Shown: positions 8,629 to 59,017 of the stretch, piece after piece
Position numbering within the stretch: position 1 is the first letter of the stretch
Layout of the letters: the number at the start of each line of letters is the position of its first letter
Assembly: GCA_003569165.1 (NCBI GenBank)
Contig: BGOI01000001.1
Coordinates: 208,501 to 272,500 of the forward strand
Source of the DNA: Opitutia bacterium
GTDB taxonomy: Bacteria; Verrucomicrobiota; Verrucomicrobiia; Opitutales; UBA953
Direction: 5' to 3'
Length of the DNA: 64,000 bases
Translations under genes and position numbers: made by a program
Notes under the pieces: model-generated
Databases searched by the model: none
The model's input: only the letters and a program-made list of their open reading frames with translations
Told to the model about the DNA's origin: nothing

Positions 8629-8991
8629 TTAGGAGCCGGGGGCGTTGAGCACTTCGGCCACGCTGGACTTCTCCACCGCAGGCGAAAGGAGCGAAAGGTC
8701 GGCGGAGGCGCCAAGTAGATCAGCGAACTGAGCGGACTCGTCGTGGGCGAAGAGGGCAAACGTCTGGCGGTTGAGCGCTTCCTCGGAAGGCGCGGACAAG
8801 GTCAGGACGGCGACGAGGCAGGCGGCAGCGGCCGTGGCCACGGAGCTCCAGCGGATCACGACGCGGCGACGACGGTCGGCGCGGACCGCCCCGACGACGC
8901 GTTCGGCGAAGCCGGTGACGGCGACGGAACGGCCACGGCTGAGCGCAGCGGCGAGTTCCTGGTCGAAGGCTTTGTGTTGAGGGTTGTCCAT
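8629..8991 (-). CDS. Putative anti-sigma-like membrane protein
   Basis: 120 aa, single central TM (VVIRWSSVATAAAACLVAVLTLSA), directly downstream of an ECF sigma gene. Confidence 0.5.
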   Translation of the reverse strand: MDNPQHKAFDQELAAALSRGRSVAVTGFAERVVGAVRADRRRRVVIRWSSVATAAAACLVAVLTLSAPSEEALNRQTFALFAHDESAQFADLLGASADLSLLSPAVEKSSVAEVLNAPGS

Positions 8992-9040
8992 GGCTCAGTT
9001 CATAGGGTTAAACACCGCCGGTGGCGGCAAGTTGCAGGGT

Positions 9041-9613
9041 TCATTCGTTTCCATAGAAGTCTTTCAGGAGCTCGCGCAGGCGGCTCCGGGCGCGGTGGAT
9101 CCAGGTCTTCACCGAGGAGACGGGTACGCCCATGATCTCGGCAATCTCCTCGTAGGGTAGCTCCTGCTGGACAACCAGAAGGATGGCGGTGCGTTGCTCG
9201 GGGGGGAGCTGAGCGATGGCCCGCTGAAAAGCTTCGTCGAGTTCGGCCACGCGCCGGGCGGACTGCTGCGACGAATCGCCGGGCTCGGCCGCGAACTCCA
9301 AGGCCGTGGTGGGCTTGCGGCCCCGGCGGCGCCACTCGTTGAGCACGAGGTTGTGGGCGATATGGATGAGGTAGGTGCTCAGCTTGGCCTCTGGACGCCA
9401 GCGGGAAGCGGCGCGGTGGAGACGGATGAAGACCTCCATCGCCAGCTCTTCGGCGGTAGCCTGGGAACCGACCTCGCCGCGCAGATAGCCGACCAGACGG
9501 GCATGGTGGCGATGGACGAGCAGACGGAGCGCATCGTCATCACCAGCTGCGACCAACGCCATCAAGCGCTTGTCGTCCTCGTCGTCGGGGAGCGTGGGCT
9601 CTTCCTGGGACAT
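9041..9613 (-). CDS. RNA polymerase ECF sigma factor
   Basis: Sigma70 region 2 (EELAMEVFIRLHRAASRWRPEAKLSTYLIHIAHNLVLNEWRRR) and region 4 (LPPEQRTAILLVVQQELPYEEIAEIMGVPVSSVKTWIHRARSRLRELL). Confidence 0.92.
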   Translation of the reverse strand: MSQEEPTLPDDEDDKRLMALVAAGDDDALRLLVHRHHARLVGYLRGEVGSQATAEELAMEVFIRLHRAASRWRPEAKLSTYLIHIAHNLVLNEWRRRGRKPTTALEFAAEPGDSSQQSARRVAELDEAFQRAIAQLPPEQRTAILLVVQQELPYEEIAEIMGVPVSSVKTWIHRARSRLRELLKDFYGNE

Positions 9614-16500: not shown

Positions 16501-16796
16501 GACAGGCCTACAAGGTGTCTGCGGTTAGCGGTAAGCGGATAGCGGTAAGGCTGAACACACGGGCCTCTGGTCTCGGCGTCCAGGTTCCAGATACGGGCTA
16601 GCAGGCACGGATACGGACCCGGAATAGGGAATCAAACCGCCATCCGTCATCTGTCATCGATGCAACCATCTACCCCAGCCCTAACCCCTATTTCAATTCA
16701 GTCCTCCATTCAGACCTCAACGCAGACCTCAACTCAGTCCTCCAAATACAAACCATCCGCCAACCGCCAACACCCTCGGCGGCCGGCAGGCCGCCG
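16501..16796. repeat. Intergenic low-complexity repeat mosaic
   Basis: GCGGTTAGCGGTAAGCGGATAGCGG; CCATCCGTCATCTGTCATC; ATTCAGTCCTCCATTCAG; CCGCCAACCGCCAA; related modules recur at 19597-19925 and 39540-39720. Confidence 0.6.
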
Positions 16797-19593: not shown

Positions 19594-19715
19594 GAATCTG
19601 CGGTAAGCGGTTGGCGGTTAGCGGATAGAAAAGACAAAGGGGCGCGGCGGCTATATTGTCCCCAGCCAATCATCCGGTCTCCGGTTTCCCTTTGAGTTGT
19701 GAATCTCTGCCTTGG

Positions 19716-19831
19716 GTAGGGGCGCCACTGCGTGGCGTCCGTTTGTAGAGGCGCGCGCGTTGAGCCGGGCAAGATCACCGGCCATTCCAAAATCCGTCCG
19801 CCCACGGACGTGATGGCAATCACGTCCCTAC
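19716..19831. repeat. GTAGGG...CCCTAC inverted-repeat doublet (E1, REP/BIME-like)
   Basis: Arms GTAGGGGCGCCAC-TGC-GTGGCGTCC and GGACGTGAT-GGCA-ATCACGTCCCTAC. Confidence 0.7.
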
Positions 19832-19905
19832 CCATTGCCCCTCCTCTATTCAGCCCTCCACTCAGTCCTCAACGCAGCACTCCATTCAGTGCTCCACTCA
19901 GCCCT

Positions 19906-32870: not shown

Positions 32871-33247
32871 GTAGGGATGCGATGACATCGCATCCGCCTG
32901 TCTCTTGGTAGGGACAGCACCACGTGCTGTCCTATCTGCATCACGTTCGCCGCAGGGCGAACGCAGGTAGGGGCACGATTCATCGTGCCCTCTTCCATCG
33001 GAGGGCGCGGCGTAGCCACGCCCCTACCCTCGGCCGCCCTGCGGCGGCCAGGCAGGGATGCGATGACATCGCATCCGCTCCTATGTCGTGACGCGGTCCC
33101 GACCCTACTCAAAGCAACACACCCGCATCCTATCCGGTTTCCGGTCTCCCTTTGGGATTCGCCACTCCCCCGTGCCCCCTTGTCACCATGCCCACGTGCC
33201 CCCTCGCGGCTCCGCCGCGCTAGGCAGGGTCGGGACCGCGTCACGAC
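32871..33247. repeat. Dense array of GTAGGG-type hairpins with at least five different stems
   Basis: Hairpins at 32871-32895, 32908-32932, 32967-32990, 33003-33027(-), 33052-33076, 33085-33108(-), 33222-33247. Confidence 0.7.
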
Positions 33248-33292
33248 CTAGCGGCAACTTGGGGAGCGGCGCGCTCGGAGAGCAAACCCCGC

Positions 33293-38099: not shown

Positions 38100-38350
38100 G
38101 TAGGGACAGCACCACGTGCTGTCCTTTTTTGTGGAAACCATTCTCGGGTGGCGGGTGGCAGCCCCGGGTGGCAGGTGGCGGGACGGGGATAGGTAGGGGC
38201 GCGACTGCGTCGCGTCCGTGGGCGAACGGAGGTCCGAATGGTCGGCGACCTGGCCCGACTCGACGCACGTGCCTCTGCGAACGGACGCCACGCAGTGGCG
38301 CCCCTACCCACTACAGATACAACGAGGGCAGCACGCGGTGCTGCCCCTAC
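38100..38350. repeat. ~250-bp composite intergenic element, copy 1
   Basis: Outer inverted ACAGCAC hairpins (38100-38124, 38326-38350), a GGGTGGCGGGTGGCAGCCCCGGGTGGCAGGTGGCGGGA module and an internal 115-bp doublet (38193-38307). Confidence 0.7.
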
Positions 38351-38394
38351 CAACATTACCTATCCCTGCCCCTACCCCAATCCCTCCGCGGCGA

Positions 38395-39474
38395 TTACTT
38401 CGCCGCGGGATAATCCGTATATCCCTTCGCGCCGGAGGCGTAGAAGGTGGCTTCGTCGGGGGTGTTGAGCGCGAGGTTCTCCCGCAGGCGACGCGGGAGA
38501 TCGGGATTGGCGAGGAACGGCACGCCATAAGCGACGGCGTCCGCCCAGCCCTCGGCGATGGCCTGCTCGGCCTGCGCGCGATCGAAGCCGCCGGCGGTGA
38601 TGAGCACGCCTTTGAAATCCTTACGCAGCTCCTTGGGACCGACGCCGTCCTTGGCGCCGTGCGCGATATCCTGGGCGGTAACGCGCGTGACGTGGGCGTA
38701 GGCGAGTTCGAGCTTGGAGAGTTCGCGGAGAAGGTAACCGAAGGTCTCGGTCGGATTGGCGTCCGACATGTCATTGAACACGCCGCCAGGCGAGAGGCGG
38801 ATGCCCACGCGATCGGAGCCCCAGATGGAGATGACGGCATTAGCGACCTCGATCGTCAGGCGGGCGCGCGCGGCGAGGGAATTGCCGTAGCCGTCGGTGC
38901 GGGTGTTGGTTCCGCTGCGGAGGAACTGGTCGAGCAGGTAGCCGTTGGCGTTGTGAATCTCGACGCCGTCGAAGCCGGCTTCCTTGGCGAGGCGGGCGCC
39001 CTTGACGTATTCGGCGACGATGCCGGGGATCTCTTCGATGTGCAGGGCACGGGGGACGACGTAGTCGGCCATCTCCTTGCCGGTCCAGAGCTGGCCCTTC
39101 GGCTTGATGGCAGACGGGGCAACGGGGAGTTCGCCGTTCGGCTGGTAGTCGGGGTGCGAAATGCGGCCGACGTGCCAGAGCTGCAGGAAGATGCGGCCGC
39201 CCTTGGCGTGCACGGCGGAGGTGACCTTCTTCCAGCCCGCGACCTGCTCGTCGGTGTAGATGCCCGGGGTATTCGGGTAGCCATGGCCGCGGGGCGAGAC
39301 CGTGGTGGCCTCGGCGATGATCAGGCCGGCGCTGGCGCGCTGGGCGTAATATTCGGCCATCAGGTCCGTCGGGACGTTGGCGCCTTCGGCGCGGCAACGG
39401 GTAAGCGGAGCCATCAGGACGCGGTTCGGCAGCGTGAGGGCACCTACTTTGAAAGGAGAAAAGAGGGAGGACAT
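38395..39474 (-). CDS. NADH:flavin oxidoreductase / Old Yellow Enzyme family
   Basis: MSSLFSPFKVGALTLPNRVLMAPLTRCRAEG ... LWHVGRISHPDYQPNG; FDGVEIHNANGYLLDQFL. Confidence 0.92.
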   Translation of the reverse strand: MSSLFSPFKVGALTLPNRVLMAPLTRCRAEGANVPTDLMAEYYAQRASAGLIIAEATTVSPRGHGYPNTPGIYTDEQVAGWKKVTSAVHAKGGRIFLQLWHVGRISHPDYQPNGELPVAPSAIKPKGQLWTGKEMADYVVPRALHIEEIPGIVAEYVKGARLAKEAGFDGVEIHNANGYLLDQFLRSGTNTRTDGYGNSLAARARLTIEVANAVISIWGSDRVGIRLSPGGVFNDMSDANPTETFGYLLRELSKLELAYAHVTRVTAQDIAHGAKDGVGPKELRKDFKGVLITAGGFDRAQAEQAIAEGWADAVAYGVPFLANPDLPRRLRENLALNTPDEATFYASGAKGYTDYPAAK

Positions 39475-39539
39475 TTGAGTGAAGAGAAGGGAGAGGGGGT
39501 AGGGATAGGGGTGGGGGTGGGAAAGGCAAGGAGGTGAAG

Positions 39540-39865
39540 AAGGTGGTGGCGGTTGGCGGATTGCGGTTAGCGGATAGGGAGAGGCAGAGGTTTCGAGGAC
39601 CTGAGGGCAGGAGGACTCGAGGACTCGAGAATTCAATGGAGGGCTGAGTTGATGACGGATGACAGAATACCCGAACCTGCACCTGAACCTGAAAACCCGT
39701 ACCAAGTACCTGACGGCCGAGACCTGAGACCTGAAAGTGTTTCTGACCCCAGCCAATCATCCGGTCTCCGGTTTCCCCTTGAGCGGGCAACATCCCGCCA
39801 CCTGCCACCCAGGGCTGCCACCCGCCACCTGAAATGAATTCCACCTAGGTCGTGACGCGGTCCCG
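39540..39865. repeat. Intergenic repeat mosaic, inverted relative to 16501-16796
   Basis: GGCGGTTGGCGGATTGCGGTTAGCGG; GAGGACTCGAGGACTCGAG; GATGACGGATGACAGA; CCCCAGCCAATCATCCGGTCTCCGG; inverted GGTGGC module; GTCGTGACGCGGTCCCGACCCTAC. Confidence 0.6.
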
Positions 39866-40048
39866 ACCCTACCCACGCAATGCATACCTGCCGATCGACT
39901 TCACAAAGGTTCAATTAGGTTCATCGCCCAACCGCTACCCGCTAACCGCCCACCGCTATCACCCCGAAGCCTCCGGCTTCGCCCCATTAATCTTCCCTCT
40001 CTAGCCGTAGACCCCTAAAAGTGCCTTACGCCTCCCGCGTCGTCTGTC

Positions 40049-44085: not shown

Positions 44086-44136
44086 CGCATGGAGGACTCG
44101 AGGACCAGAGGCCCCGAGGACAGGAGTAATTTGAGG

Positions 44137-44382
44137 GTGGGACAGCACCACGTGCTGTCCTTTTTTGGGGGCATCATTCTCGGGTGGCAGGTGGCAGCCC
44201 CGGGTGGCAGGTGGCGGGATGCACCGGGGTAGGGGCGCGACTGCGTCGCGTCCGTGGGCGGACGGAGGTTGGAATATCGAAAAAGTCCGCCCGGTGAGTC
44301 GCACGTTCCTATGCGAACGGCGGCCATGGCAATGGCCGCCCTACCCGAGGCAGGCTAGGACAGCACGTGGTGCTGTCCCTAC
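44137..44382. repeat. ~250-bp composite intergenic element, copy 2
   Basis: Same module order as 38100-38350; internal doublet 44229-44344; outer inverted ACAGCAC hairpins. Confidence 0.7.
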
Positions 44383-44409
44383 CTAAATACACCTCCGGCC
44401 CTCCTGTCC

Positions 44410-45135
44410 TCAGGCCCTCGAAATAAGCCTCCCCCAAGCTCTCGCGTAATCGCCAGCGGCTTTGCCGAGGCGGATGCGGCCGGCGTCATCGTCGGTCCAC
44501 TTGACGGAAATCTCGACGAGCCTGGCGCCCGTGCGCGCGAGGCGCACGAAGGCTTCGGCGCCGAAAGAGAAACCGCGCGCGTCGGCAGGTATCTGCAACG
44601 CCGCAAAAGTAGAACGACGGACGAGCTTCAGCCCGCAGCCGGGATCGGTCATGCGCGCCCCAGGCAGCATCCGCCAGAAACACGAAAGCGTCGCGGAGAT
44701 GAACGAACGTTTCCACGTACGACCGATGACCTGCGAATCGCGATGCCAGCGCGAGCCCGCGACCAGGTCGGCCTTGCCTTCGGAGATCAGGCGATAACCT
44801 CGCACGAGCGCTTCGGGATCCGTCGCCATGTCGGTATCGCAGTAAGCCAGGACGTCGTAACCTTCTGGGGCGGACTCCCAGGCTGAGAAAATTGCGACAC
44901 CCTTGTCGCCATGGTCGCAAGCGCGATGGTAGACGACGCGATAAGGAATCTTAGCGGCGGACTCGATGGCCACGGCCCGCGTCCAATCAGTAGAGCCGTT
45001 GTCCGAGACCACGATGAGCACGTCCGGGCACTGGTGGGCCTGCAGGCTTTCGGCCAGCCGAGCTAGGCCAGGACCGAGGCGGCGCTCCTCATTGCGCACA
45101 GGAATGACGATCAAGAGGGGCATCCGGGAGCCCAT
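44410..45135 (-). CDS. Family 2 glycosyltransferase (dolichyl-phosphate-sugar synthase-like)
   Basis: LLIVIPVRNEERRLGPGLARL...VSDNGSTDWT...AYCDTDMATDPEALVRGYRLI. Confidence 0.85.
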   Translation of the reverse strand: MGSRMPLLIVIPVRNEERRLGPGLARLAESLQAHQCPDVLIVVSDNGSTDWTRAVAIESAAKIPYRVVYHRACDHGDKGVAIFSAWESAPEGYDVLAYCDTDMATDPEALVRGYRLISEGKADLVAGSRWHRDSQVIGRTWKRSFISATLSCFWRMLPGARMTDPGCGLKLVRRSTFAALQIPADARGFSFGAEAFVRLARTGARLVEISVKWTDDDAGRIRLGKAAGDYARAWGRLISRA

Positions 45136-46060: not shown

Positions 46061-46136
46061 GGAACGCCTAACGTCGGTCGTTCAATGGGTAAGGACAGCA
46101 CCACATGCTGTCCTATTTTGTTGGGTTCGCATATAG

Positions 46137-46190
46137 GTAGGGCCGAGCATCCCTGCTCGGCCGCGGCCGGCCAAGGATGGCCAGCCCTAC
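46137..46190. repeat. GTAGGG...CCCTAC short doublet (E10)
   Basis: GTAGGGCCGAGCA-TCCC-TGCTCGGCC ... GGCCAAGGATGGCCAGCCCTAC. Confidence 0.65.
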
Positions 46191-46252
46191 CCGAGGCAGA
46201 GATACTCAACTCAAGAGGAGACCGGGAACCGGATGATTGGCTGGGGCCGGAG

Positions 46253-46369
46253 GTAGGGACGTGATTGCCATCACGTCCGTGGGCGGACGGAGGTTGGAAT
46301 ATCGAAACAGTCTGCCCGGCGATACGGACGTGCCGCGGCGAACGGCGGCCATGGCAATGGCCGCCCTAC
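46253..46369. repeat. GTAGGG...CCCTAC doublet (E9), 117 bp
   Basis: GTAGGGACGTGAT-TGCC-ATCACGTCC ... GGCGGCCAT-GGCA-ATGGCCGCCCTAC. Confidence 0.7.
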
Positions 46370-46519
46370 CCATAACAGGTAACAGCGGTTGGGCACTCAA
46401 AGCGAGACTGTAAACCCGAGTTAATGCTGCGGGAAAATGTCCCCAGCAAACCATCCGGTCTCCGGTTTCCCTTGTCTCTTACAAACCGCCAACCGCTAAC
46501 CGCCACCACCTATCAAAGC

Positions 46520-50807: not shown

Positions 50808-50964
50808 AGGGTCGCAAGCCCGCTCTTTAAATGCCAGTTTTATGAGTTTAAATGCGATTTAAATGATTTTAAATGACTTTATTCAGTCTTTTGGAACAAA
50901 TGCGAATAACCAATCCTTTGACTTTCCCCTAGGGTGGTTTACCGTGATTTTACCCCAATCTACT

Positions 50965-53637
50965 ATGAGACTTAAACGCTCAGGTTTCTCCCTCGTTCTG
51001 TCGCTTACCATCATGGCAGCCATGGTGATGATGGTGATCGTCCTCGCTTCCTTCCTGCAGGTCGAGAGCCGCTTAGCCCAGAGCCACGCCGGCTACCTGA
51101 GGGCGCGCTTCAACGCCTTGGCTTCCGCTCGTATCGCCATCGGCCAGCTGCAGCAGCTCGCCGGCCCTGACCAACGCGTGACCATGCGTGCGGACATGTA
51201 CGCCGACAATGATAAAGCCGTCGGCGACAATGACGCCGCCACTATCGACCCGATCCGCGACCTCCCGAATCGCGCCAACAATAACGCTCCGAAAAGTGGT
51301 AAAATTTCACACCAGAAGCGCTACCTCACCGGCGTGTGGGCGACTGGCGGTGCGGACGCCACGCGCGTCCGCGACTGGGATGTCACCAATCCCGCCGACT
51401 CGCGTCTCTTCCTGGGCTGGTTGGCCTCACCGTTCGACGTCAATGCCTCCCCCGAACTCTCCGGCACGCTGCCGAACTACGTCCCGAATCGGAGCTATTT
51501 TGAGTCGAATGATGACGCCACGTCGCGCACCAGTCTCCGCCGCGTGGAGGTGGCGACGAAAGCCCAGGAAGCCCAAGCCTACATCGACGATCTTGCCAAC
51601 CCGATCAGTACCGTTCCTTCGGAAATCGTGCCGCTCGTCTCCTACGGTTCGGTCAACCTGCCCGCCGGACTGACCGCACTGCAGCGCAATTACATGGGCG
51701 CGGTCGACGCGCGCCCGCAGCCGCTGCCCGGCCCCGCCTTCAGCGACACCAAGTCGCTGGGCGCCAACGGGCGCTACGCGTTCTGGATCGGCGACGAAGG
51801 CGTGAAGGCTAAGGTCAACCTGCCGGACTACTACGCCTCGACCAGTGGCGGCTCGTGGCTCTCCACCGAAAATTGGGACAAGGGCTTCGCCGGCTCCGCC
51901 AATCAGCGCAACTCCATCGGCGTCATCGGAGGCTCCGGCGAAACAATCAAAGAGGGCGTGAATTCAAAGGGCCAACTGCCGGCCGGCTTCAATTTTGATG
52001 TCTGGCGGGCGAAGGACCTCACCGACGCGGCCGGTAATCCGCAAGCCTACCAGCTCTCCAAGGCTGTCGGCATCTCGGGCCTTTCCGCCTGGGCCGCCAA
52101 GCAGGGAGGCGTCTCGGCCGGCAATGCGATGAACGACGCCGCCAAACTCCTCTGGCACGACATCACCACTTATTCTTACTCGACGCTGACCGACACCTAC
52201 AACGGCGGCGTGAAGATCGACCTCTCGACTGCCTTCGAACTGCCCTATGCGATGTACCGCGGCATCGAACTCTATCCCGGGCAAAAAGAAACGGCGATCC
52301 AGTTCCCGGCGCCAAGCTCGAGCGTCATCAAGCTGAGGGAAAGCAAGCAGTCTCTCTTCCACGGTTCGCCTAACGCCGCCGTTACCACGGCCGGACTCGG
52401 CGCCGCCGGCTTCGCGGTGGACCTCGATTACAACCGCCCGAACCTCGTCGACAAGCTCGGCTCTGACAATCAATTGCTGCTCGCTTCGCCCCGGGCCTCC
52501 GAATGGGCGCCGCGCTCCCTGAGGAACCTGCTGGGCTCATCCTACACCGACCTGAAGACCCGCAACGGAGGGGAAACTCCCGAACGCCTCGGCTTCGTCT
52601 ACGAGGCGCCGCTGCGCTCGGCTTTTTACGGACACAACAACGACGGGGTGCGGATTGCGGCCAACACCGAGCTTAGCCCCAACGCGACCCAGACCACTTG
52701 GAGGACCGACAGCGGACGGCCTGCCCTTCAAGAACGTCGCAATGTCCTGCCTTGGGCAGAGCTTCCTGCCACCCACCCAGAAAACCTCACCGGGCGCATC
52801 ATCCGCGGCCCGACTTGGGATCTCTACCGCAATTATTACCGGATGTACAAACGCGAGATCGAGCAAGCTGGCCAGTCCTCGGGCGCGCTCCGTGGCCAAG
52901 AGGCCGCCGCGGACGACGCCGTGGTCGCCCGCGGGGTCGAACCGTTGACCTTTGCCTCAGGCAACCGCAACTCCCCGATGCAGCGAGGGCGCAACGCATC
53001 GGGCGCAGGGAACGCGCCTTACGAAAAAGCCCCCACGCCAAACGGGTTTTACGCCGCCGGCGGCAGCCCGCCCGCCAACCGTTATTTTTACCGCAACAAT
53101 TTCACCGCCCCGACCGCCTCGCCGAGTTTCCAAGGCGAGCAGCGCCTACGCTACCCCGAGATCCTTCGGCATGCCTTCAACAATCAAGCCGGCGGGGGGG
53201 GCACCTCCACCGCGGGGGACATCATCACCAACTTCGATCGCATGGGCTTGGCCAACCCAGCCCGGACGGTCGACGATGCTTATTTCGAACTCGCCGACGG
53301 CAAGAAAAGCGTCGAACTGACCACGCGCACCTGGCCCACCTCGATGAGTTTGATGCCGTCGATTGTCCGCTTCTCGATGGTGTTTTCCGGTGTGTTTTCA
53401 GGCCAGACCTCGGGCGACCCGCATGGCACCATCGGCCTAACCATCGACCCCGTCGTCATGGTGCACAATCCCTACGATGTCGCGATTGAGTTCGAGGGCA
53501 TCGCGATGGTGACCAACGGAGACTCGCTGCCCTACATCGTCGATGTTCAGCTCAGGGACTGGGTTTTTAATAGCACGGAATTACAATACTTCGACCCAGA
53601 GCGCCCGAGCAATCCCCATACGGACAAGAGCCCCTGA
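50965..53637 (+). CDS. Verru_Chthon cassette protein A-like giant prepilin-type protein, N-terminal part
   Basis: RLKRSGFSLVLSLTIMAAMVMMVIVLASFLQVESRLAQSHAGYLRARFNALASARIAIGQLQ; ends at TGA directly after a C4 run. Confidence 0.75.
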   Translation: MRLKRSGFSLVLSLTIMAAMVMMVIVLASFLQVESRLAQSHAGYLRARFNALASARIAIGQLQQLAGPDQRVTMRADMYADNDKAVGDNDAATIDPIRDLPNRANNNAPKSGKISHQKRYLTGVWATGGADATRVRDWDVTNPADSRLFLGWLASPFDVNASPELSGTLPNYVPNRSYFESNDDATSRTSLRRVEVATKAQEAQAYIDDLANPISTVPSEIVPLVSYGSVNLPAGLTALQRNYMGAVDARPQPLPGPAFSDTKSLGANGRYAFWIGDEGVKAKVNLPDYYASTSGGSWLSTENWDKGFAGSANQRNSIGVIGGSGETIKEGVNSKGQLPAGFNFDVWRAKDLTDAAGNPQAYQLSKAVGISGLSAWAAKQGGVSAGNAMNDAAKLLWHDITTYSYSTLTDTYNGGVKIDLSTAFELPYAMYRGIELYPGQKETAIQFPAPSSSVIKLRESKQSLFHGSPNAAVTTAGLGAAGFAVDLDYNRPNLVDKLGSDNQLLLASPRASEWAPRSLRNLLGSSYTDLKTRNGGETPERLGFVYEAPLRSAFYGHNNDGVRIAANTELSPNATQTTWRTDSGRPALQERRNVLPWAELPATHPENLTGRIIRGPTWDLYRNYYRMYKREIEQAGQSSGALRGQEAAADDAVVARGVEPLTFASGNRNSPMQRGRNASGAGNAPYEKAPTPNGFYAAGGSPPANRYFYRNNFTAPTASPSFQGEQRLRYPEILRHAFNNQAGGGGTSTAGDIITNFDRMGLANPARTVDDAYFELADGKKSVELTTRTWPTSMSLMPSIVRFSMVFSGVFSGQTSGDPHGTIGLTIDPVVMVHNPYDVAIEFEGIAMVTNGDSLPYIVDVQLRDWVFNSTELQYFDPERPSNPHTDKSP

Positions 53638-58670: not shown

Positions 58671-58935
58671 GTAGGGACAGCACCACGCGCTGTCCTTTTG
58701 TGTTTCCTGATTAGGTAGGGCCGAGCATCCCTGCTCGGCCGTGGCGCCAAGGATGGCCAGCCCTACCTAAGACACCAAAGGGCGCTCAATGAAACCGGAG
58801 ACTGGTTGATTGGCTGCGGCCTTGAGGGTGGGGCGCGACGGCGTCGCGTCCGTTGACCAAAGTCACTGAGAATAGCCAAGCCGGTCTACCTCGCACGACA
58901 TGAGGCGAACGGACGCGACGCCGTCGCGACCCTAC
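58671..58935. repeat. Cluster of GTAGGG-type elements
   Basis: 58671-58695 ACAGCAC hairpin; 58715-58766 GGCCGAGCATCCCTGCTCGGCC doublet; 58827-58935 GTGGGGCGCGAC doublet; inverted CCGGAGAC..GATTGGCTG module at 58794-58818. Confidence 0.65.
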
Positions 58936-59017
58936 CCAAACAAGAAGGGCGTCCTGGCGGACGCCCTCATTTCTCCGGCCCTCCGGTCATCGGGCCCTCT
59001 GGCCCTCCACTCGTGTC

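What the first reader, a model, noticed from the sequence alone, without database searches (positions are those of the whole stretch)
38100..38350. ~250-bp composite repeat, duplicated at 44137-44382
Both loci share the order: ACAGCAC hairpin + T6; CATTCTCGGGTGGC[A/G]GGTGGCAGCCCCGGGTGGCAGGTGGCGGGA; GTAGGGGCGCGACTGCGTCGCGTCC doublet; inverted ACAGCAC hairpin ending CCCTAC. The outer hairpins are in inverted orientation, so small doublets nest inside a larger inverted repeat. The right arm of the internal doublet differs (ACGCCACGCAGTGGCG vs GGCGGCCATGGCAATGGCC), so arms appear to be exchanged as cassettes.
Basis: seen in the sequence. Interest (0 to 1): 0.65.

Follow-up and report, generated by a model that had tools for sequence, protein, structure and literature searches.

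The report
Nested jumping palindromes between bacterial genes
The repeated 250-base stretch is a nest of small palindromic mobile sequences (REPs/REPINs) whose matching transposase genes sit elsewhere in the same bacterium; that class is known, but here the nests follow a strict inside-out order and facing that I did not find described.

Summary
Both stretches (38100-38350, 44136-44382) are clusters of GTAG-tagged REPs. Each has an outer inverted pair of unit A (GTAGGGACAGCAC-cac-GTGCTGTCC), a G-rich module B, and an inner 115-bp inverted doublet (REPIN). It is not a simple duplication: unit A alone has 60 copies (at most 3 mismatches) in this 2.03-Mb genome. So the A pairs are non-autonomous relatives of a REPtron, a known kind in Verrucomicrobia. 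'Cassette exchange' is partly right: one REPIN body carries two stem classes; 32 of 35 copies have matched arms and 3 are hybrids, one being the 44-kb copy. Beyond the finding, intergenic clusters are concentric. Every module family, including non-palindromic short-word arrays, faces inward (441 pairs against 18) whether neighbouring genes are convergent, co-directional or divergent, in the layer order word arrays > A > B > D > REPIN. I infer repeated insertion into the centre of older inverted repeats. A new variant of a known kind.

The parts
38100..38124 (+). GTAG-REP unit A (GTAG + 9-bp stem + CAC loop), followed by T6; reads as an intrinsic-terminator-like hairpin 21 bp after the nuoI stop codon
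38131..38183 (+). module B, G-rich with 7-nt words (GGTGGCA)
38193..38307 (.). R3 REPIN, two GTAG-REPs head to head, stems GGGCGCGAC-TGC / GGGCGCCAC-TGC
38326..38350 (-). GTAG-REP A' (GTAGGGGCAGCAC-cgc-GTGCTGCCC), inverted outer cap; identical to the ends of the RAYT element G000:C3:71666-72226
38350..38377 (-). word array E4 (6-nt words), outermost shell
44092..44126 (+). word array E2 (8-nt words GAGGACTC), outermost shell
44136..44160 (+). GTAG-REP A with degenerate foot GGTG, followed by T6, 50 bp after the RNase R stop codon
44175..44219 (+). module B
44229..44344 (.). hybrid R3 REPIN: left stem GGGCGCGAC-TGC, right stem GGCGGCCAT-TGCC
44358..44382 (-). GTAG-REP A, inverted outer cap
44400..44419 (-). 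word array E2, inverted partner of 44092-44126
46089..46503 (.). further nest: A+ F4 D+ R3L+ R3R- D- E8- (convergent gene pair)
39549..39956 (.). further nest between divergent genes: E8+ E2+ E9+ E5- D- B- G- E8-
58671..59012 (.). further nest between co-directional genes: A+ F4 D+ R3L+ R3L- E2-
32871..33251 (.). further REP cluster: R2+ A+ H+ H2- R2+ G- D- G+ (one of the few with imperfect polarity)

Best explanation
The stretches are nests of non-autonomous GTAG-REP elements mobilised by RAYT transposases resident in the same genome. Shown by sequence: unit A and its variant A' are the exact terminal repeats of about 560-590-bp elements that hold one RAYT gene each; A...A pairs with other contents are the same ends without the gene; they are high-copy, intergenic, and differ between related species at the same site. 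Inferred: RAYT recognises the GTAG-side hairpin in single-stranded DNA, cuts next to the CTAC end, and copies the pair elsewhere. Inferred, less sure: new elements land by preference between the arms of an existing inverted repeat (its single-stranded apex), so clusters grow from the centre and become concentric with all modules facing inward. Where the left A sits just behind a stop codon and has gained a T-run (nuoI, rnr), it has probably been kept as the transcription terminator, while the contents inside turn over.
For: A-RAYT-A in this genome at G000:C3:76201-76792, same site in G004 and G011. RAYT proteins match NF047646 REP_Tyr_transpos (E 6.9e-22, 2.7e-19, 6.2e-20) and the solved TnpAREP 4er8 (E 4e-11), with HUH PDHLH and Tyr ..YVLMNPVRAGL. 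A'-RAYT-A' at C3:71666-72226. RAYT and flanking REP change together: ACAGCAC, TCAGCAC, F4 (CTGACCA/TTGAGCG) and GCGTGCG types each flank a RAYT gene in the genus. Uniform architecture GTAG + 9-bp stem + 3-4-nt loop with compensatory stems; G precedes GTAG in 97-100% of copies, giving CTAC|C(T) outside as TnpAREP cleavage at CT would need (PMC8266576). Centre-growth: single orientation switch in 81 of 93 clusters (18.5 expected), pairs 441:18; non-REP modules alone 80 of 82, 200:3; independent of gene orientation, co-directional 34/34, divergent 18/19, convergent 46/54; fresh loci 10/11 against 4.6; layer order A outside B 45:4, outside D 38:1. A-T5/T6 kept at nuoI and rnr in nearly all repeat-bearing relatives while inner modules differ.
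Against: No insertion event was resolved base by base at the two loci of the finding: relatives have rearranged or no modules, not a clean before/after pair. RAYT scores lie under the NCBIfam cut-off (69.5-77.9 against 80). The two arms of a shell are no more alike than arms of different loci (permutation p 0.07 to 1), which a recent one-piece insertion of both arms would not predict; arms may be replaced singly. T-run copies are not significantly more often behind gene ends than other A copies (5/6 against 29/44, p 0.65), so the terminator role rests on two sites. Without family labels the inverted excess is modest (53:25 beyond 140 bp). REPs of R3, R2 and F5 type have no RAYT identified here.
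Confidence: 0.85

Rival explanations
1. One 250-bp composite (A-B-REPIN-A) moves or was duplicated as a unit; the two window copies are parent and child.
For: Same order and 88% identity over 142 bp; A directly outside B recurs (45:4).
Against: Inner right arms, caps and outer shells differ between the copies; modules occur in many other combinations and genome-wide; related species have other contents at the same sites.
Confidence: 0.05
2. Nests are built by ectopic recombination or gene conversion between clusters through shared outer modules (A, B, D), which swaps inner contents and so preserves layer order; RAYT only supplied the first copies.
For: Layer order is kept while contents swap between species; hybrid and swapped REPIN arms; shell arms not locus-coupled.
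Against: Does not by itself explain why all families face inward or how nests arose; shared tracts of 25-54 bp are short for homologous recombination.
Confidence: 0.3
3. The nests are transcription structures: long bidirectional hairpins kept by selection at gene ends, each gene carrying its own polar set of 3' modules, so that convergent pairs look nested.
For: Clusters are commoner at convergent pairs (75 convergent, 70 co-directional, 25 divergent clusters, against 8:25:7 gene pairs in the window); A+T6 terminator-like hairpins.
Against: Inward polarity is as strong between co-directional (34/34) and divergent (18/19) genes; most A copies lack a T-run.
Confidence: 0.15
4. The inverted arms arise by fold-back copying at replication forks, one arm templating the other.
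For: Concentric symmetry; one contig (L068) has long identical inverted arms.
Against: Arms of one locus are not more alike than arms of different loci in A, B, D, E3 (permutation p 0.5-0.97).
Confidence: 0.05

Closest known systems
GTAG-tagged REPs and REPINs / REPtrons with RAYT (TnpAREP) transposases (Di Nocera 2013 PMC3733652; PMC3686654; PMC8266576)
   Same: GTAG foot, short perfect stem, head-to-head inverted doublets, homo- and heterodimers, high intergenic copy number, RAYT gene flanked by cognate REPs, several RAYT/REP pairs in one lineage. Opitutus terrae (Verrucomicrobia) is already listed as rich in GTAG repeats.
   Different: At least six stem families coexist with word-array families in one genome; clusters are concentric with fixed inward polarity and layer order, which these papers, as far as I read them, do not describe.
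BIMEs (bacterial interspersed mosaic elements) of enterobacteria
   Same: Mosaic REP clusters between genes with REPs in both orientations and intervening motifs.
   Different: As described, BIMEs repeat doublets in tandem; here different families are nested one inside another, not in tandem.
Insertion sequences that target REP palindromes (PMC1525189)
   Same: Precedent for mobile DNA entering existing REP palindromes.
   Different: Those are autonomous IS; here the guests are REPs and word arrays themselves. Targeting of the apex is inferred, not shown.

Membership tests
GTAG-REP / REPIN | 5' GTAG tetranucleotide directly followed by a palindromic stem-loop | tested here: met
   GTAG + 9-bp stem + 3-4-nt loop in nearly all of 97 units; 24 in window against 0.2 in shuffles
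GTAG-REP / REPIN | Inverted (head-to-head) doublets with GTAG outside | tested here: met
   R3 doublets of about 115-117 bp; neighbouring A pairs +- 29, -+ 0
GTAG-REP / REPIN | High copy number, extragenic | tested here: met
   60 A copies in 2.03 Mb; clusters in the window lie in predicted intergenic gaps
REPtron (RAYT + flanking cognate REPs) | RAYT gene with HUH and catalytic Tyr motifs | tested here: met
   NF047646 E 6.9e-22 to 2.7e-19, though 69.5-77.9 bits are under the 80-bit cut-off; PDB 4er8 TnpAREP hit E 4e-11; PDHLH and YVLMNPVRAGL motifs
REPtron (RAYT + flanking cognate REPs) | Gene flanked by the same REPs that are dispersed in the genome | tested here: met
   A at both ends of C3:76201-76792, A' at both ends of C3:71666-72226
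REPtron (RAYT + flanking cognate REPs) | RAYT binds and cuts its REP as single-stranded DNA at CT | not testable with these tools
   Only a flank compatible with CTAC|CT was seen (71% of A copies)
BIME | Tandem arrays of alternating REP doublets with short spacer motifs | tested here: not met
   Clusters are nested with one orientation switch; outward-facing order in 18 of 459 pairs
Intrinsic transcription terminator (A + T6) | GC-rich hairpin followed by a U-run just after a stop codon | tested here: inconclusive
   Met at 38102-38130 and 44139-44166, but only 6 of 50 A copies have a T-run; no transcript data

The most novel reading that the evidence does not exclude
In this clade, intergenic regions grow as ordered concentric nests: RAYT-borne REPs and several unrelated non-palindromic word-array families (6-, 7-, 8- and 12-nt words) all insert, with fixed inward polarity, at the apex of the inverted repeat already present, so that the hairpin tip is a shared target site and layer order records insertion history. 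The word arrays would be a mobile or templated element class of their own.
Probability: 0.3. Interest if true: 0.7.

Novelty: new variant of a known kind. Interest (0 to 1): 0.52.

Why it matters
How REPs spread is still open. One genome holding at least three RAYT elements, two of them with ends exactly matching dispersed REPs, plus dozens of derivatives and some 20 sister species, makes both RAYT/REP specificity and target choice testable by comparison and in vitro. If the apex-insertion reading holds, intergenic DNA in this clade carries a readable layer-by-layer record of mobile-element arrival.

Tried and rejected
Covariance model for a genome-wide REP count: the alignment put the loop-length gap inside the stem, so counts were taken by pattern and script. 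Rfam: no match in the window. Fold-back copying of arms: tested and disfavoured. Gene-end polarity as the cause of the inward facing: tested and rejected. T-run enrichment behind gene ends: not significant. Label-free nesting test: too few pairs (1 nested, 2 crossing, 1 disjoint). A first regular expression for REPINs found nothing and was rewritten. Pfam Y1_Tnp alone misses the A-type RAYT (17.9 bits, cut-off 23), so counts of RAYT genes by Pfam are lower bounds. Literature searches for nested REP clusters in this group found nothing; the library holds only open-licence papers.

Full report
What was claimed and what is there. The two stretches are as described, with exact limits 38100-38350 and 44136-44382. 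The one correction is the right cap of the first copy, which is the variant A' (GCAGCAC, loop CGC). The 'ACAGCAC hairpin' begins with GTAG, followed at once by a 9-bp perfect stem and a 3-nt loop. The hairpins of these clusters share this plan with different, internally complementary stems. This is the GTAG-REP plan of the literature (PMC3733652), where Opitutus terrae, a verrucomicrobium, is named as highly enriched.

Copy number and host. The window lies in a 2.03-Mb, 37-contig genome, 86.6% complete. The exact 25-base A unit was found in at least 111 stretches of public genomes; the 80 listed are all titled Opitutae, Opitutia, Opitutales, Opitutus or Verrucomicrobia/Verrucomicrobiota, apart from a few labelled Akkermansia, also verrucomicrobial. 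The module families are absent from about 130 kb of loci of other families of the order, and only one A hit lies in 85 kb of distant members of the same genus, so the set belongs to one clade. The own genome has 60 A copies with up to 3 mismatches and none for the reversed control.

The transposases. Pfam Y1_Tnp finds one gene in the genome, a 147-aa protein on C32 with head-to-head REP doublets on both sides (stems GGTCAGCAC / GGTCGGCAC). Looking for A pairs at larger spacing showed two further elements that the Pfam search misses: C3:76201-76792, 592 bp, A at both ends and a 163-aa RAYT inside, and C3:71666-72226, 561 bp, A' at both ends and a RAYT reading frame inside. The A-type protein matches the NCBIfam REP-associated tyrosine transposase model (77.9 bits, cut-off 80) and the solved TnpAREP 4er8. 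The C3:76201 element is in the same place in G004 and G011; in G015 the site holds a 167-bp inverted pair of other words, and in G023 a D-type nest. Across the genus, RAYT genes are flanked by REPs of their own type: A in G011, TCAGCAC in G000, G002 and G007, F4 in G001, G004 and G008, GCGTGCG in G023.

Arms as cassettes. In R3 REPINs one body of about 115-117 bp carries stems of two classes. Of 35 doublets with both arms classified, 32 are matched and 3 hybrid; in the AC class left and right stems also occur exchanged. The 44-kb copy is one of the hybrids. So arms do recombine, but rarely.

Concentric order. I annotated 18 module families with short seeds. Orientation labels were set from a few early examples, then counted in all clusters. 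Leaving out REPIN-type doublets, which are inverted by definition, 81 of 93 clusters have a single switch from + to -, against 18.5 expected; within the own genome alone, 27 of 29 against 6.6. With only the non-REP modules B, D and E, 80 of 82 against 29.0, pairs 200:3; E arrays alone 35 of 35. Twenty further loci fetched later for their A copies gave 10 of 11 against 4.6, mostly two-module clusters. The facing does not follow the genes: co-directional 34/34, divergent 18/19, convergent 46/54. Layer order is nearly fixed: A outside B 45:4, outside D 38:1, outside R3L 45:4, with E1-E4 mostly outside A and the others. When two families each have one inverted pair in a cluster, 9 of 9 are nested and none crosses. 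Caveats: orthologous sites of sister species are not independent, loci were chosen for containing A or its neighbours, and the label-free test is weaker (53 inverted against 25 direct beyond 140 bp, while between regions the ratio is 20703:20711).

Turnover. At the nuoI and rnr sites, relatives whose genes are about 93-95% identical carry different inner modules, while A with T5-T6 stays the first REP after the stop codon in nearly all that carry repeats; more distant genus members have short intergenic gaps without modules. This fits a terminator kept by selection with free space behind it, but only 6 of 50 A copies have a T-run and the tie to gene ends is not significant.

How it most likely works. 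Shown: REP class, resident RAYT elements with identical ends, high copy number, concentric polarity. Inferred from TnpAREP work (PMC8266576): recognition of the GTAG hairpin in single strands and cleavage at CT; here G precedes GTAG in 97-100% of copies and AG in 71% of A copies, so that CTAC is followed by C(T). Inferred and less sure: insertion into the apex of older inverted repeats as the cause of nesting. Ectopic recombination through shared outer modules is the main rival for the swapping of contents and may act in addition. What the word arrays are, and whether they move by themselves, stays open.

Verdict. A known kind (GTAG-REP/REPIN with RAYT), new members and a new variant in organisation.

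Noticed in passing
38395-39636: The FMN-oxidoreductase gene after nuoI is convergent in this genome and close relatives but co-directional with nuoI in distant members of the genus (L163-L168, L170, L171). In this genome it lies between inverted copies of B (38144-38183 / 39793-39832, 95%), so an inversion by recombination between repeats is possible.
   Followed up: partly
L274:767-1327 (G000:C3:71666-72226): RAYT element with A' ends only about 4 kb from the A-ended RAYT element on the same contig.
   Followed up: partly
window 16518-16742, 19597-19894, 39549-39956 and relatives: Families of degenerate arrays of 6-, 7-, 8- or 12-nt words (e.g. GCGGTTA, GAGGACTC, GAGGACTGAATA), often as outer inverted pairs; origin and function unknown.
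   Followed up: partly
L068:31-505: Long, nearly identical inverted arms (A plus about 60 bp) around about 300 bp; a real long palindrome or an assembly effect.
   Followed up: no
L224 (G010:C7) 8811-9492: A-D-R3 block repeated in direct orientation within one intergenic region, including a copied piece of the neighbouring gene end.
   Followed up: no
50863-53637: 924-aa predicted protein with an N-terminal hydrophobic stretch and no Pfam match.
   Followed up: no
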